From a virus: a DNA stretch of 25,657 bases. Below, one piece after another: positions 20,592-25,657 of this stretch. The stretch covers positions 1 through 25,657 of IMG/VR virus record IMGVR_UViG_3300010430_000419. The stretch is one strand, 5' to 3'. The notes below the pieces were generated by a model that was given only the letters and a program-made list of their open reading frames with translations, had not been told where the DNA came from and did no database searches. The first letter of the stretch is position 1. Every line of letters starts with the position of its first letter. The translations under genes were made by a program, and so were the position numbers.

Positions 20592-20636
20592 GCGTCCCGC
20601 ACCACCGGCGAAACGGGAAGGTGCTTAACCACAGAC

Positions 20637-20652
20637 TCAAACGGAGATAGAT
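20637..20652 (+). repeat. Conserved leader / ribosome binding site, copy 1
   Basis: TCAAACGGAGATAGAT directly before ATG 20653; shares CAAACGGAGAT with six other starts in the operon. Confidence 0.85.
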
Positions 20653-21126
20653 ATGAGCAACACGACTAACAATGTAGATTTCACCAAACTGAACCTTCGC
20701 ATCGATAACCTGAACCATGTCATTGATGAGGCACAGGCAAATGGCATGACAGTTGAGGCATCACAGGCTGCACAGGAACGTGTCAGTGGATGGTTCAGTA
20801 AAGGTGCCATTGCCCTCAGCCAAATGACGAAGATCGAGCGTGAGGCATTCCAACTCGATCTGGATGACTCACTGATGGTTGGCTGGATTGATGAACGCAT
20901 GAGAATGGAAGAGACACTGCGGCTCAACCTGATGCACATCACCAGCAACTGGCTCATCACTGAAACTGCCAAGCTGGTCAGTCCGGCAGGATTCCATCCC
21001 AGTGATCGTGTCTTCATTGCAACTGATGTCCAGACCAACTGCGAGACATCGAGAGAAGCAATGCGCTATGCGGCAGACGGCAGTGTTCCACTGTACTTGC
21101 ATGACATGTCAGTATTTGACGAGTAG
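20653..21126 (+). CDS. Hypothetical early-operon protein
   Basis: 157 residues starting MSNTTNNVDFTKLNLRIDNL, largely helical and acidic. It has an amphipathic stretch (EASQAAQERVSGWFSKGAIA) and an EREAFQLDLDDSLMVGWIDE segment. No catalytic or DNA-binding motif and no membrane segment are visible, and I do not recognise a family. It is the first gene after the operator-containing promoter and has leader copy 1 as its ribosome binding site, so it is probably made early and in quantity. Such first-position phage genes often encode host-takeover proteins, but that is inference from position only. Confidence 0.72.
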   Translation: MSNTTNNVDFTKLNLRIDNLNHVIDEAQANGMTVEASQAAQERVSGWFSKGAIALSQMTKIEREAFQLDLDDSLMVGWIDERMRMEETLRLNLMHITSNWLITETAKLVSPAGFHPSDRVFIATDVQTNCETSREAMRYAADGSVPLYLHDMSVFDE

Positions 21127-21139
21127 TTGCTACCCAGTT

Positions 21140-21159
21140 GGGGTCACTGACCTGACCCC
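21140..21159 (+). other. 7-bp hairpin after the first operon gene
   Basis: GGGGTCA-CTGACC-TGACCCC forms a perfect stem 13 bases after the stop codon, followed only by TTCT, so it is at best a weak terminator. It may stabilise the 3' end of the first message. It occupies the same kind of gap that the two hammerhead ribozymes occupy downstream. Confidence 0.5.
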
Positions 21160-21190
21160 TTCTGAGTGTCAATTTCGACGCTAATTTAAC

Positions 21191-21207
21191 TCAAACGGAG
21201 ATAGAAA
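21191..21207 (+). repeat. Conserved leader / ribosome binding site, copy 2
   Basis: TCAAACGGAGATAGAAA directly before ATG 21208. Confidence 0.88.
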
Positions 21208-21582
21208 ATGATCAAGCAAATAATCACAGTTGAAGTCACGATGGCATACGAACTGGATGAACTGGAATCGGGCGAATGGCAGGTCGTTGATCCTGACGGT
21301 TGCATCCTGAAGACCTTCAATACCAAGCAACGTGCGTTGGACAATATTAACGACTGGGTCTATGGCGACACCGGCACTGAAAATTTCAGGATGGCACAGT
21401 TGGATGAGCCGACTGATGAGAGACTCCCAACTGCACGGGCCATCATTGACCTGATGAACCGGACAATCGAGCAGTGGAACAAACGACTTGATGCACACCC
21501 CGATTCATTACGTGCCGTCCACTACCTGTTGGACAGGATCACTGCTCACAAGATGAGCATCCGCACGATTACCAACGACTAA
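21208..21582 (+). CDS. Hypothetical early-operon protein
   Basis: 124 residues starting MIKQIITVEVTMAYELDELE. The N-terminal 50 residues look like a small alpha/beta domain with GEWQVVDPDGCILKTF and KQRALDNINDWV; this 'W.V.d..G.....F.....A...i' arrangement suits a compact beta-hairpin plus helix. The C-terminal half is helical and charged. No family recognised. Its TAA stop is followed at once by the first hammerhead ribozyme (GTC at 21583), so ribosomes finishing this gene would cover the ribozyme's 5' strand. Confidence 0.72.
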   Translation: MIKQIITVEVTMAYELDELESGEWQVVDPDGCILKTFNTKQRALDNINDWVYGDTGTENFRMAQLDEPTDERLPTARAIIDLMNRTIEQWNKRLDAHPDSLRAVHYLLDRITAHKMSIRTITND

Positions 21583-21644
21583 GTCGAAACCGGCCTTGTG
21601 CCGGTCTGGTGGAACTGATCACCCACCACTGATGAGACAGATCA
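21583..21644 (+). ncRNA. Type II hammerhead ribozyme with loop I-3' tail pseudoknot, copy 1
   Basis: All hammerhead core elements are present in order. Stem II: GUC 21583-21585 pairs with GAC 21636-21638. GAAA: 21586-21589. Stem III: ACCGGC 21589-21594 / GCCGGU 21600-21605, loop CUUGU. Cleavable C17: 21606. Stem I: UGGUGG 21607-21612 / CCACCA 21623-21628, loop of 10. Core CUGAUGA: 21629-21635. Loop I UGAUC (21616-21620) pairs with 3' GAUCA (21640-21644), equivalent to the loop I-stem II tertiary contact that speeds natural hammerheads. Cleavage is predicted between 21606 and 21607. The short 3-bp stem II is the main weakness; matching covariation with copy 2 supports it strongly. Confidence 0.88.
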
Positions 21645-21652
21645 AATAACTT

Positions 21653-21669
21653 TCAAACGGAGATAGAAA
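21653..21669 (+). repeat. Conserved leader / ribosome binding site, copy 3
   Basis: TCAAACGGAGATAGAAA directly before ATG 21670, 8 bases after the ribozyme pseudoknot strand. Confidence 0.88.
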
Positions 21670-22023
21670 ATGATTATTAAATTCCACCAACTGCATGACG
21701 GCATGGTTCTTTACATGACATCCCTCACATCCATAAATCTGGTCGAAGAAGTGCTTCCAGAGGTTCAGGCGGCATCGAGGTTAAATGTGCAGATCGACAA
21801 CATGACTGATGGCACTGCCTGCAAGATCGGTGCCTTGCTAGCCAACAAATATCAGGAAAATGTCATTGTCGAATTGTTCGACTGCAACCATCGGATCACT
21901 GCCTCGTTTTACCAGTACCCACCCAGAGTCTGCACACAATGTGGCGGCACTTTATTTGAAGGCACCATTGGCAACACATGTGATTCCTGCGAATCCACCA
22001 ACTCAAACGGAGATAGAAAATGA
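21670..22023 (+). CDS. Small zinc-ribbon protein
   Basis: 117 residues. The N-terminal 80 residues form an unrecognised alpha/beta domain (MIIKFHQLHDGMVLYMTSLT). The C terminus has a zinc-ribbon pattern, Cys88-x2-Cys91 and Cys104-x2-Cys107 (VCTQCGGTLFEGTIGN then CDSCE), which should bind one zinc ion. Such ribbons mediate nucleic-acid or protein contacts in many phage regulators, but no partner can be named. The last codons overlap the next start as ATGA, and the next gene's leader copy 4 lies inside its coding end (SNGDRK). It is the first cistron of the message expected after cleavage by ribozyme 1. Confidence 0.75.
   Translation: MIIKFHQLHDGMVLYMTSLTSINLVEEVLPEVQAASRLNVQIDNMTDGTACKIGALLANKYQENVIVELFDCNHRITASFYQYPPRVCTQCGGTLFEGTIGNTCDSCESTNSNGDRK
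22003..22019 (+). repeat. Conserved leader / ribosome binding site, copy 4, inside upstream coding end
   Basis: TCAAACGGAGATAGAAA directly before ATG 22020, translated as part of the zinc-ribbon protein C terminus. Confidence 0.88.
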
Positions 22024-22706
22024 ATACAGCTAACAACACCCAGTTCCAGATTCACCAGATCAACCTGCGTGATATCAGTGATGAGATCAATCGGCTTGGT
22101 TGGACTGATGCCTGTGCGAAGTACGAACAGGTTCAGGCCCATCTGGACTATTCCTGCAGCGGTTCCCGCAATCGTGATGGTGAGAACCAGTTCAAGGCAG
22201 AACACCTGCGGCACTATGATCATGTCGCCACCATCGAGGCCACTGGCCTTGAGAATGTTTTCGAGATCGGCAACATCGGGCCTGAATCCAAGATCACCCG
22301 CATCCTGCCGATGCACTCGATCAGCGTGGGTGACATCGTCCAGTCCGGTGGTTTGTTCTGGATGTGCGAACCATGTGGGTTCGTTGAGATCACCGACATC
22401 ATCAGTGAGTCACTGGCAGTTGAGCCAGTCGATCCGACTCGTTATGCGGTCATCGATTGCAACGTCACCAGTGAGGTCGGTGCCTACCTGCCATCAGGTT
22501 ATGAGATCGTGGGGATCGTCCAGATGGACGGCAGTTCCTGCACCCTGATCAAAGGTCTGGATCACGCAGGCTGGACGCTCGACGGTTACGTGTTGCCCCG
22601 TCTGGGTTCAGGTTGGTTGCACGGCAATGAGATCACTGCTGATGAGGCCGACCAGTTGGTCAAGGCATCTGCTCTTGATGCATCAGGCAAGAGGGCATCA
22701 GCATGA
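22020..22706 (+). CDS. YodL-like domain protein
   Basis: 228 residues. The segment HSISVGDIVQSGGLFWMCEP followed by CGFVEI (about residues 99-124) matches the 'S.SVGDvv...g..y.v...GF..i' pattern of YodL-like domains found in phage, plasmid and mobile-element proteins; the family's biochemical role is not settled. The C-terminal part has YEIVGIVQMDGSSCTLIKGL and a GYVLPRLGSGWLHG beta segment that I do not recognise. The N terminus is helical and polar. It overlaps both neighbours: start ATGA with the zinc ribbon gene and end ATGATG with the small membrane gene. Confidence 0.72.
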   Translation: MNTANNTQFQIHQINLRDISDEINRLGWTDACAKYEQVQAHLDYSCSGSRNRDGENQFKAEHLRHYDHVATIEATGLENVFEIGNIGPESKITRILPMHSISVGDIVQSGGLFWMCEPCGFVEITDIISESLAVEPVDPTRYAVIDCNVTSEVGAYLPSGYEIVGIVQMDGSSCTLIKGLDHAGWTLDGYVLPRLGSGWLHGNEITADEADQLVKASALDASGKRASA

Positions 22707-22843
22707 TGGCACTGGAACTCTGGTTGCAGGCACACCCGCACTTTGTTGCGGCACTGTTAATGGTGATGGGGATCGGCCCCATTGCCATCGGTGAGTACGT
22801 TAAATTTAACAAACAAACGGAGATACAAAATGAAGACGATTAA
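22703..22843 (+). CDS. 46-residue single-span membrane protein
   Basis: ATG 22703 overlaps the previous stop as ATGA; a second ATG follows at once. The 46-residue product has one hydrophobic segment (FVAALLMVMGIGPIAIG, about residues 14-30) and a polar tail. The C-terminal part is encoded over leader copy 5 and the first codons of the next gene, ending TAA 22841-22843. GAGGG upstream could serve as ribosome binding site. It could be an inner membrane accessory or a holin-like protein, but it is short with a single span and no lysis genes adjoin it. Function unknown. Confidence 0.55.
   Translation: MMALELWLQAHPHFVAALLMVMGIGPIAIGEYVKFNKQTEIQNEDD
22813..22829 (+). repeat. Conserved leader / ribosome binding site, copy 5
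   Basis: ACAAACGGAGATACAAA directly before ATG 22830; two substitutions relative to the common form. Confidence 0.85.
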
Positions 22844-23066
22844 AGAAAATGGCAAGTTCAAATTCGATTACGAAGTGGAAGGCATGGTGTTCTTTGGGCA
22901 GACCGATGTTGCCCTGCTGGATCGCAAGACCGGTCAGCAGGTGGTCGTGTCGATTGAGAAGCTGGAAGCTGATCTACCTGCGGCAAAGTACAAACTGATT
23001 TCTGCCGACCTGTTGATGAGCAATCGGTTCACCAATGACCGGTACGATATCGTCGGGCTGGGATGA
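22830..23066 (+). CDS. Hypothetical early-operon protein
   Basis: 78 residues from the ATG that follows leader copy 5; a longer frame from 22782 lacks a ribosome binding site. The protein starts MKTIKENGKFKFDYEVEGMV and contains DVALLDRKTGQQVVVSIEKL, suggesting a small beta-rich fold with a C-terminal helix. No family recognised. The stop TGA at 23064-23066 is followed directly by GTC of ribozyme 2, mirroring the arrangement after the gene ending at 21582. It is the last cistron of the middle message expected from ribozyme cleavage. Confidence 0.7.
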   Translation: MKTIKENGKFKFDYEVEGMVFFGQTDVALLDRKTGQQVVVSIEKLEADLPAAKYKLISADLLMSNRFTNDRYDIVGLG

Positions 23067-23130
23067 GTCGAAACCACCCGCAAGGGTGGTCTGCCGGAAC
23101 CTGACCAACCGGCACTGAAGAGACAGGTCA
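23067..23130 (+). ncRNA. Type II hammerhead ribozyme with loop I-3' tail pseudoknot, copy 2
   Basis: Same architecture as copy 1 with different stem sequences. Stem II: GUC 23067-23069 / GAC 23122-23124. GAAA: 23070-23073. Stem III: ACCACCC 23073-23079 / GGGUGGU 23084-23090, closed by a GCAA tetraloop. C17: 23091. Stem I: UGCCGG 23092-23097 / CCGGCA 23109-23114. Core CUGAAGA: 23115-23121, differing from CUGAUGA only at position 7, the one core position known to vary. Loop I UGACC (23102-23106) pairs with GGUCA (23126-23130). Cleavage is predicted between 23091 and 23092. Compensatory changes relative to copy 1 occur in stem I, stem III and the pseudoknot. Confidence 0.9.
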
Positions 23131-23134
23131 TTAC

Positions 23135-23150
23135 TCAAACGGAGATAGAA
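23135..23150 (+). repeat. Conserved leader / ribosome binding site, copy 6
   Basis: TCAAACGGAGATAGAA directly before ATG 23151, 4 bases after the ribozyme 2 pseudoknot strand. Confidence 0.88.
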
Positions 23151-23498
23151 ATGAAAGCAGTAAAATTTGAAGTGAAGTGCAAAAAAACAGGACAGGTTAC
23201 CCGTGAATTGTTCAAGTTCGAAGCAGATGATTATGAACTGGCACTGGGCCATGTTCACACCCTGCGGAATGATCCGGAGTTCTGTGCCAAGCACGGCAGG
23301 CCGATCCTTGAAACGTGTCGGGTTGAGTCATTGAAACCGGCGACAGTGGATGTGAAACCGACTTGGCAGTTCGCAATGAAGGTCTACATCATGGCACTGG
23401 AAAATGGCACTCGCGAAGGCAAGCAGGCAGCACGGGATGACCTGATGGAACTGGCCCGTAGTCTGGACGCGAAATTACAAAATGGAGTGAGTAAATGA
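23151..23498 (+). CDS. Hypothetical protein, first MKAV-start gene
   Basis: 115 residues starting MKAVKFEVKCKKTGQVTREL. The first half looks like an alpha/beta unit (strand, strand, helix: FKFEADDYELALGHVHTLRN) and the C-terminal 45 residues are helical (WQFAMKVYIMALENGTREGK, then DDLMELARSLDAKL). No known motif. It is the first cistron downstream of ribozyme 2 and overlaps the next start (GTAAATGAAA). It shares its first eleven coding bases, ATGAAAGCAGT, with the two genes starting at 23495 and 23860. Confidence 0.7.
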   Translation: MKAVKFEVKCKKTGQVTRELFKFEADDYELALGHVHTLRNDPEFCAKHGRPILETCRVESLKPATVDVKPTWQFAMKVYIMALENGTREGKQAARDDLMELARSLDAKLQNGVSK

Positions 23499-23863
23499 AA
23501 GCAGTAGCAATCAGGATCGGTCAGTCCGGCAAGGAACGGATCGAGGTAGACGGCACCGTGTATTTGAAATCGGTGCCGGTGGGCAAGTGGAACTACATCA
23601 GCAGGATCGAAGTGGATCGTGGTGCCGACATTTTCACTTTCTATGCCCGTCACCGGACTGAGGCAAATGCATGGGCCTACACACCCAGTAACATGTTCTA
23701 TGATTTCTGGGCAGGTCGGTCTGACAAGATGAGTCAGGATGGTTTGGCGGCAATCGAGGCAGGCACCGGCAAGTGGGTGAAGTTGCGGGGTGGGTTCAAA
23801 GTCTACCGTGTACCGATGCCATACCGTTGCGACTTTGTCACAGTCAGACGGGCGGCATCATGA
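23495..23863 (+). CDS. Hypothetical protein, second MKAV-start gene
   Basis: 122 residues starting MKAVAIRIGQSGKERIEVDG. The protein appears beta-rich with many aromatic residues (GKWNYISRIEVDRGADIFTF then SNMFYDFWAGRSDKMSQD) and ends in basic sequence. No family recognised. GGAGTGAGTAA before the ATG is a good ribosome binding site, located in the end of the previous gene; the ATG overlaps that gene's TGA. The stop overlaps the next start as ATGA, making the four genes from 23151 to 24191 one coupled block. Confidence 0.7.
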   Translation: MKAVAIRIGQSGKERIEVDGTVYLKSVPVGKWNYISRIEVDRGADIFTFYARHRTEANAWAYTPSNMFYDFWAGRSDKMSQDGLAAIEAGTGKWVKLRGGFKVYRVPMPYRCDFVTVRRAAS

Positions 23864-24015
23864 AAGCAGTCAAGATCAGCAAGTTGGTCAGTGAGCAGGC
23901 AGAGCAGGACAAGCAGAAAATGTGGGATCGCAAGATCAGCAAATTCATGCTGGTCGGTTACCTGCTGCTCAATCTGGTTGGATGGTTGTATTGGACTTTT
24001 GGAGGCAACGTATGA
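23860..24015 (+). CDS. 51-residue single-span membrane protein, third MKAV-start gene
   Basis: Start ATG 23860 overlaps the previous stop as ATGA. The 51-residue product has a polar, charged N-terminal half (VSEQAEQDKQKMWDRKISK) and a C-terminal hydrophobic segment (FMLVGYLLLNLVGWLYWTF, residues about 29-47), consistent with a tail-anchored inner membrane protein with its N terminus in the cytoplasm. A longer frame from 23773 has no ribosome binding site. Its neighbours give no lysis context. The role is unknown. Confidence 0.68.
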   Translation: MKAVKISKLVSEQAEQDKQKMWDRKISKFMLVGYLLLNLVGWLYWTFGGNV

Positions 24016-24191
24016 AATCACCAACGAAGACACGGGTTCTGGAATTCAGGGTTGAGCATGGCCTGACCCAAAGACAGGCAGCAGACATGATCTGGGTGAC
24101 TGACAGGACATGGCGCAATTATGAATACGGGATTCGCCAAATGCCTGCCGGTTTCTGGGAACTGCTGCAGATCAAGGCCCGAAAATTATGA
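24012..24191 (+). CDS. Small helix-turn-helix DNA-binding protein
   Basis: 59 residues from ATG 24012, which overlaps the previous stop as ATGA and follows TGGAGGCAACGT, the strongest ribosome binding site of the operon's end. The sequence VEHGLTQRQAADMIWVTDRT followed by WRNYEYGIRQMPAGFWELLQ is a compact XRE-like helix-turn-helix of a type common in phages and plasmids ('GLTQ..AA..v.v..r.W..wE.G.r.mp...weL...k'). It probably binds DNA, perhaps the palindromes upstream of the operon as an autoregulator; that target is inference. It is the last gene before the operon terminator. Confidence 0.78.
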   Translation: MKSPTKTRVLEFRVEHGLTQRQAADMIWVTDRTWRNYEYGIRQMPAGFWELLQIKARKL

Positions 24192-24218
24192 CGATAAGAA
24201 ACTGACCCGCACCCATTC

Positions 24219-24247
24219 AGGCCCGTCTAACCCACGGGCCTTTTTTT
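24219..24247 (+). terminator. Rho-independent terminator of the plus-strand operon
   Basis: AGGCCCGT (24219-24226) pairs with ACGGGCCT (24234-24241) around loop CTAACCC, and the stem runs into seven T. Located 28 bases after the helix-turn-helix gene. Confidence 0.9.
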
Positions 24248-24276
24248 GTCTGGGGGAAAGTGACAGGTGGTCGCAC

Positions 24277-24292
24277 TCAAACGGAGATTCAA
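24277..24292 (+). repeat. Conserved leader / ribosome binding site, copy 7, beyond the terminator
   Basis: TCAAACGGAGATTCAA directly before ATG 24293. It is the only copy downstream of the operon terminator, and no promoter was found between. Confidence 0.8.
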
Positions 24293-24590: not shown

Positions 24591-25657
24591 TCAGGCACTG
24601 ACCTGATTCAACAGGATGGCAGTCCACTTGTCGATGGTGTCCTGACACCGATCCGCTTGCCGCAGGTGTTCATCACGTTGGGCAATGGCAGTCTGCAGTT
24701 CATCCGAAATATTGACGATGGAATTCTTGTCCACCTGTGCTTCCCTGATCTTGATGACAGGTTCACCGGCAGGTGGCAACGTGACCACTGCCACCGGTGC
24801 CGTCTCGACGGGTTCCGGTTTCGCCAGTTCTTCTACTCGATTTGCTTCTTGCTGCTCGATCCATGCCTTTTTCTCCGGAGAGTCGAAGTACTTGGCGGCA
24901 GGTGAATCAGAATCGTCCAATTCGCCACTGGTTGCCTTTTCGGGGGCCGGAGCGACTTCCTGCGTGGCTGGAGCAGGTGTTACCTCTGCCGACTCTGATT
25001 CCACGGGCGCAGAGTGCGTATTTTGACTCTCGATCTCTTCCACCATCGGCCCAGAACCAGATAATAGCCACTGGATGCGAGTGCCACTGGCCTTAGCCAG
25101 CTTGCCAACGAACACTGGATTCGGTATCCGGCTCGATGGGCCAGTCGCCATGTAGGCAAGCAAGGTGACCCGTGCCAGACCAACTCTGTCTGCCAAATAG
25201 GACATGGCATCTTTGTTGAGGTCATAAACATAGTCCTTCTCTGCCGCCTTGCGAAGTCGATCACCGAATCCATCCTTTTTGAAAGCAGGGATCGTGAACG
25301 GATCGTCTCCGGCCCCAGTTTTCAACCATTCGAATGGCACTTTGAACAGCTTGGCATATTGATGCAGGGTGGAATCCCGTGGGATCGATTGTTTGCCGAT
25401 CAGAGTCGAGTGCTTGCTGAAAGTTGAATTGCCTTGGGAGGTCAGGACACCGATCTCTGCTGCAGTCAGGCCGGAGTGGATTGAGCAGTCGGTCAGACGC
25501 AGGGCAAGGTCACGGGCATCGGCTGGGGGTGTCGCCAGAACATTGGTGACTGAGCCGGTGCCGGACACCATCCACCGGTGGTTCACATTGAACAGCTTGG
25601 ATAGTTTCTTCAGCACCTTGGGTGGTGGTGGTCGATAGAACTGGGATGCCATGTCGA
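24591..25657 (-). CDS. Regulator with three tandem XRE-like repeats, 5'-incomplete
   Basis: The frame has an ATG at 25652 but is still open at the window edge; because the first repeat lacks its N-terminal helices, the gene most likely starts outside. Counting from that ATG: repeat 1 ends LSKLFNVNHRWMVSGTGS (about residues 17-34); repeat 2 (about 45-118) ends YAKLFKVPFEWLKTGAG; repeat 3 (about 130-205) starts FGDRLRKAAEKD and ends KLAKASGTRIQWLLSGSGP. The 'LAk.f.v...WL.sG.G' ending is typical of CI-like XRE domains. A Pro/Ala/Glu-rich linker (about 205-300) and a C-terminal helical segment (DELQTAIAQRDEHLRQADRC) follow. DNA binding is likely; no peptidase domain is seen. Confidence 0.72.
   Translation of the reverse strand, partial: DMASQFYRPPPPKVLKKLSKLFNVNHRWMVSGTGSVTNVLATPPADARDLALRLTDCSIHSGLTAAEIGVLTSQGNSTFSKHSTLIGKQSIPRDSTLHQYAKLFKVPFEWLKTGAGDDPFTIPAFKKDGFGDRLRKAAEKDYVYDLNKDAMSYLADRVGLARVTLLAYMATGPSSRIPNPVFVGKLAKASGTRIQWLLSGSGPMVEEIESQNTHSAPVESESAEVTPAPATQEVAPAPEKATSGELDDSDSPAAKYFDSPEKKAWIEQQEANRVEELAKPEPVETAPVAVVTLPPAGEPVIKIREAQVDKNSIVNISDELQTAIAQRDEHLRQADRCQDTIDKWTAILLNQVSA

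What the first reader, a model, noticed from the sequence alone, without database searches (positions are those of the whole stretch)
23067..23130. Second hammerhead with covarying stems and an independently covarying pseudoknot (copy 2)
The second copy keeps every core base except position 7 (U to A, the known variable position) while stem III becomes ACCACCC/GGGUGGU with a GCAA tetraloop, stem I becomes UGCCGG/CCGGCA, and the pseudoknot becomes UGACC/GGUCA in place of UGAUC/GAUCA. Compensatory change in three helices with a fixed core is strong evidence of selection on RNA structure. The 5-bp loop I-tail pseudoknot with a single A after GAC in both copies suggests a specific subtype worth describing.
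Basis: partly seen in the sequence, partly recalled or inferred. Interest (0 to 1): 0.92.

Follow-up and report, generated by a model that had tools for sequence, protein, structure and literature searches.

The report
Phage self-cutting RNA between genes
The sequence is a genuine self-cleaving hammerhead RNA of an already described kind (type II with a pseudoknot), one of two that lie between genes of a phage operon; the less expected part is that such ribozymes, in many unrelated phage contigs, often start right at the stop codon of the upstream gene, which suggests a job in cutting operons into shorter messages.

Summary
Copy 2 (23067-23130) is a type II hammerhead: complete core, stems I, II and III, and a 5-bp loop I/3'-tail pseudoknot. 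Both window copies pass Rfam's Hammerhead_II cutoff. They also hit a covariance model built only from unrelated viral hammerheads, at E 3e-15 and 3e-18. The covariation is real in 38 unrelated sequences, pseudoknot included. The proposed 'specific subtype' is not new: type II hammerheads with exactly this loop I-tail pseudoknot, often clustered between prophage genes, were described and assayed by Perreault et al. 2011. In both copies the ribozyme starts at the base after the upstream gene's stop codon, and the next start codon lies 26-31 nt after stem II. In two further viral samples the upstream stop begins 4-12 nt before the catalytic GAAA in 51-66% of ribozymes, against 9% in the main decoy set. 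Often the stop codon's last base is a base of stem II. The likeliest role is co-transcriptional cutting of a polycistronic mRNA into segments with structured ends. Cleavage was not tested.

The parts
23064..23066 (+). TGA stop codon of the upstream gene, directly abutting stem II of copy 2
   Evidence: sequence; ORF list
23067..23130 (+). type II hammerhead ribozyme, copy 2 (stem II to end of pseudoknot)
   Evidence: Rfam RF02276 38.5 bits; R1 60.7 bits, E 3.4e-15
23073..23090 (+). stem III hairpin, 7 bp with GCAA tetraloop; would be the 3' end of the upstream cleavage product
   Evidence: fold -13.3 kcal/mol for 23064-23091
23091..23092 (+). predicted cleavage site after C17
   Evidence: inferred from the hammerhead core (established chemistry); not assayed
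23092..23114 (+). stem I hairpin with 11-nt loop; would be the 5' end of the downstream product
   Evidence: sequence; fold
23102..23106 (+). pseudoknot 5' strand UGACC in loop I
   Evidence: covariation in relatives
23126..23130 (+). pseudoknot 3' strand GGUCA in the tail
   Evidence: covariation in relatives
23133..23153 (+). repeated leader ACTCAAACGGAGATA with Shine-Dalgarno GGAG and ATG (23151) of the next gene
21580..21582 (+). TAA stop codon of the gene upstream of copy 1
21583..21644 (+). type II hammerhead ribozyme, copy 1; predicted cleavage 21606/21607
   Evidence: Rfam 43.6 bits; R1 71.7 bits, E 2.7e-18
20653..21582 (+). operon segment 1: two small genes before copy 1
   Evidence: ORFs, leader repeats
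21670..23066 (+). operon segment 2: three small genes between the ribozymes
   Evidence: ORFs; start at 22830 behind a leader repeat
23151..24191 (+). operon segment 3: four small genes, the last an HTH protein
   Evidence: ORFs, HTH_3
24219..24247 (+). intrinsic-terminator-like hairpin plus T tract at the end of the operon

Best explanation
Copy 2 is a self-cleaving type II hammerhead ribozyme that sits in the gap between two genes of a phage operon and, with copy 1, cuts one long transcript (about 20.65 to 24.25 kb) into three messages. Sequence and covariation support the ribozyme fold; cleavage itself is inferred. Cleavage after C23091 would leave the upstream message ending a short way past its stop codon in a GC-rich GCAA-capped hairpin with a 2',3'-cyclic phosphate. 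The downstream message would start with a 5'-hydroxyl on the stem I hairpin, which can still pair with the tail as an H-type pseudoknot, about 20 nt before the next start codon. Both ends would be structured and poor substrates for the usual end-dependent RNases, so the cut would allow separate stability and translation of the gene blocks; that last step is inference. The tight fit between stop codon and Shine-Dalgarno, seen across many phages, indicates that the ribozyme is an intercistronic part and not a random insertion.
For: Rfam match for both copies; strong hits to an independent model; covariation in all four helices including the pseudoknot. Upstream stop codon at -6 from G12 in both copies. 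In a viral sample not selected for it, 38 of 119 stops are at exactly -5/-6 and 79 of 119 in -4..-12, against 6 and 12 of 130 for pattern hits without stems (Fisher p 9e-9 and 5e-22). A further sample with another stem II sequence gives 31 and 61 of 119. The chosen start codon lies a median of 25 nt after stem II, within 45 nt in 111 of 121, with an SD word in 106. Arrays of 7-8 such ribozymes between successive genes in one contig. Stem III loops are GNRA or UNCG in 149 of 317. Precedent: clustered prophage hammerheads cleave in vitro and in E. coli (PMC3088659), and a halovirus mRNA 5' end maps within 3 nt of a hammerhead cleavage site (same paper).
Against: No cleavage assay or RNA-seq for this phage. 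The MFE fold with flanks pairs UGAGU (23064-68) with ACUCA (23133-37) instead of forming stem II, which could slow copy 2; that outer pairing is hardly above shuffles across the family. Orthologous copies could not be tested: the nearest relatives by terminase show no match to the early genes. Protection of product ends is not shown here. Genes behind the ribozymes share no common function.
Confidence: 0.8

Rival explanations
1. Translation-gated switch: because the stop codon touches or enters stem II, a ribosome terminating on the upstream gene covers stem II and GAAA and blocks folding, so cleavage happens only on poorly translated or freshly made RNA; the ribozyme senses translation of the upstream gene. 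(A specific form of the best explanation.)
For: Sharp edge of stop positions at -5/-6 from G12. Where the stop lies at -5 its last base is a stem II base: UAG faces C in 68 of 69; UAA/UGA face U in 10 and A (no pair) in 6. Replicated in separate samples.
Against: Plain genome compaction predicts the same decline of distances from the same edge. The A before stem II is also common when the stop lies elsewhere, so the ribozyme may want that base for itself. No functional data.
Confidence: 0.2
2. Genome compaction only: the ribozyme is active and useful, but its fit against the stop codon is merely minimal spacing in a dense phage genome.
For: Stop positions thin out gradually from -5/-6 outward; downstream spacing is equally tight.
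Against: No direct evidence against it; it leaves unexplained why half to two thirds in unrelated phages lie within a few nucleotides, but does not forbid it.
Confidence: 0.45
3. Decaying or inactive hammerhead-like sequence.
For: Copy 2 scores only 1.5 bits over the Rfam cutoff and has a competing pairing with its leader.
Against: All core bases, all stems and the pseudoknot are intact in two diverged copies; R1 E 3e-15.
Confidence: 0.05

Closest known systems
Type II hammerhead ribozymes with loop I-tail pseudoknot (Rfam RF02276; Perreault et al. 2011, PMC3088659)
   Same: Core, topology (stem II open), short stem II, loop I paired with nucleotides just 3' of stem II, clusters between phage genes.
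   Different: Nothing in the fold. Loop I of copy 2 has 11 nt against the commonest 10. The relation to the stop codon is not mentioned in that paper's main text.
Halovirus HF1/HF2 HHphage hammerhead variant (PMC3088659)
   Same: Lies just upstream of a start codon in early genes; transcript 5' end near the cleavage site.
   Different: Variant core that needs high salt; other host group.
HDV-like theta ribozymes of gut phages (PMC10879173, abstract only)
   Same: Self-cleaving ribozymes placed in phage genomes.
   Different: Other fold, linked by its authors to tRNA-based recoding; not related.

Membership tests
Hammerhead ribozyme | CUGANGA ... GAAA ... UH core with cleavage after H17 | tested here: met
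   CUGAAGA 23115-21, GAAA 23070-73, U23090 C23091
Hammerhead ribozyme | three helices around the core | tested here: met
Hammerhead ribozyme | self-cleavage activity | not testable with these tools
   needs in vitro transcription
Type II hammerhead (RF02276) | stems I and III closed, stem II open; score above gathering cutoff | tested here: met
   43.6 and 38.5 bits against 37
Type II hammerhead (RF02276) | pseudoknot of 4 or more bp between loop I and the tail (majority feature) | tested here: met
   5 bp in both copies; covariation in relatives
A separate new subtype | geometry distinct from the published type II consensus | tested here: not met
   same register as the commonest viral sequences; consensus in PMC3088659

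The most novel reading that the evidence does not exclude
Phage type II hammerheads are stop-codon-fused intercistronic cutters: the upstream gene's stop codon is built into or against stem II, so the terminating ribosome gates cleavage and the ribozyme couples translation of one gene to the release of the next message.
Probability: 0.2. Interest if true: 0.72.

Novelty: new member of a known kind. Interest (0 to 1): 0.42.

Why it matters
What hammerheads do in phages has been open since 2011. The ribozyme here is an ordinary member, but the placement rule (stop codon, ribozyme, Shine-Dalgarno, start, with almost no slack) narrows the possible roles and makes them testable: operon cutting with structured ends, with or without gating by the terminating ribosome. 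It also gives annotators a way to rank hammerhead hits and to check gene ends.

Tried and rejected
Outer helix UGAGU/ACUCA around the ribozyme as a conserved extension: mean pairing 3.23 against 3.09 shuffled over all ribozymes, so not a general feature of note; in copy 2 it comes from the leader repeat. Orthologous copies in close relatives: nine loci with a related terminase have no hammerhead, and none matches the early genes. The protein just downstream (23151-23498) finds no relatives in viral contigs. No near DNA match in phages. PaP3, which carries a core-variant hammerhead according to the 2011 paper, gave no hit with model R1. A shared function of genes behind ribozymes: 88 proteins spread over 27 families, nearly all unknown. 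A third copy in the window: none. Stop codon usage (TAG-rich at ribozymes) was set aside because the first scan pattern fixes AG before UC.

Full report
What is there. The window is an IMG/VR virus record of 25,657 bases with head, connector, tail and terminase genes on the minus strand and a block of small genes on the plus strand from 20653 to 24191, ending in a terminator-like hairpin. In that block two sequences match Rfam Hammerhead_II above its cutoff: 21582-21646 with 43.6 bits and 23066-23132 with 38.5 bits. The finding concerns the second.

Is it more than chance. A covariance model (R1) built from 38 hammerheads of unrelated viral contigs, without the window, finds the two copies at E 2.7e-18 and 3.4e-15; the next window match has E 0.31.

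Covariation. A scan of viral contigs for the core with free helix sequence gave 120 loci, in which a stem parser found 207 ribozymes (the count includes the window's own copies). After a second viral scan and one genome scan, 317 non-redundant ribozymes with good stems were used. For sequences of one geometry (stem III insert 14 nt, stem I hairpin 22 nt) an ungapped alignment of 38 was made. Six of the 44 of that geometry were left out by hand: one near-duplicate and five with other stem II or tail geometry. All four helices are 92-100% paired, with 175 double-sided changes against 48 in shuffles. Stems I and III were required by the parser and stem II partly by the scan pattern, so their pairing percentages are not independent evidence; the pseudoknot was not selected on. 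It shows 41 double-sided changes against 11.6, and 91.6% paired cells against 12-42% when slid. With all 44 sequences and whole tails swapped between sequences, it is 88% against 69% with a maximum of 75%. Over all 317 ribozymes the longest Watson-Crick run between loop I and tail averages 4.26 against 2.78 for swapped partners.

Is it a new subtype. No. Perreault et al. 2011 (PMC3088659) describe type II hammerheads with a conserved pseudoknot between loop I and the 3' tail after stem II, test it by mutation and rescue, and report clusters that flank single genes in prophages, with cleavage in vitro and in E. coli. The single A between stem II and the pseudoknot is common in a sample not selected for it.

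Placement. In both copies the stop codon of the upstream gene (TAA 21580-82, TGA 23064-66) is followed directly by the GUC of stem II. To see whether this is general I measured where the longest upstream open frame (at least 35 codons) ends, relative to the G of GAAA. The first scan pattern fixes AG before UC and is therefore biased; it gives 94 of 148 at -5/-6. A second scan that left all bases before the last C of stem II free gives 38 of 119 at -5/-6 and 79 of 119 in -4..-12; hits to the same pattern whose stems do not pair give 6 and 12 of 130 (Fisher 9e-9 and 5e-22). A third scan with stem II GGC/GCC gives 31 and 61 of 119; its 27 decoys are few and 11 of them fall in -4..-12, perhaps because some are real ribozymes with imperfect stems, so that control is weak. 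Where the stop lies at -5 its third base takes the place of a stem II base: UAG faces C in 68 of 69, UAA or UGA faces U in 10 and A in 6; the six A cases are not pairs. On the other side the start codon lies a median of 25 nt after stem II, usually behind a Shine-Dalgarno word; start sites were chosen by a simple score that favours near starts and SD words, so this figure leans short. In the genome set (16 strong hits) the same trend holds, 11 of 15 in -4..-12. The main text of the 2011 paper does not mention stop codons, and nine paper searches found no report of this placement; the library lacks most subscription journals, so this is not proof of novelty.

Mechanism. Shown: fold, conservation, position. 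Inferred: cleavage after C23091 and C21606, three messages from one transcript, a structured 3' end (stem III, -13.3 kcal/mol for copy 2) and a structured 5' end (stem I with the pseudoknot, which the 2011 paper found to form without the rest of the ribozyme). That 5'-OH and hairpin ends slow decay is general knowledge and was not tested here. Whether the stop codon contact is functional (ribosome gating) or only compaction cannot be decided from sequence.

Limits. The stem parser was cross-checked against Rfam itself in ten contigs, one of them a terminase relative of the window: eight have matches over the cutoff.

Noticed in passing
window 20635-24288, seven sites: A leader (A)ACTCAAACGGAGATA precedes seven plus-strand start sites, only two of them behind ribozymes; phage-specific leaders also recur within other ribozyme-rich contigs (shared word median 7 nt within, 4 nt between contigs). 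Resembles the start-associated sequences known from some phages (from memory).
   Followed up: partly
window 22020-22706; L231 minus strand: The 228-aa protein between the two ribozymes has a 33% identical relative in L231, where it also ends just before a hammerhead-like element (below the Rfam cutoff), followed by small genes including an HTH protein resembling the one at 24012-24191.
   Followed up: partly
L144 142 and 1532 (-), L159 2474 and 3864 (+): Type I hammerheads in these contigs carry a possible upstream-gene stop (TAA) inside the 5' strand of stem I (GTAACACTGATGAG), so stop overlap may not be limited to type II (very few cases).
   Followed up: no
L016, L047, L096, L195, L366, L416: Contigs with about 6-8 type II hammerheads between successive small genes in one block.
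   Followed up: partly
window 24012-24191 and 24591-25652: Two HTH proteins on opposite strands face each other around the operon's terminator; the second resembles phage repressors.
   Followed up: no
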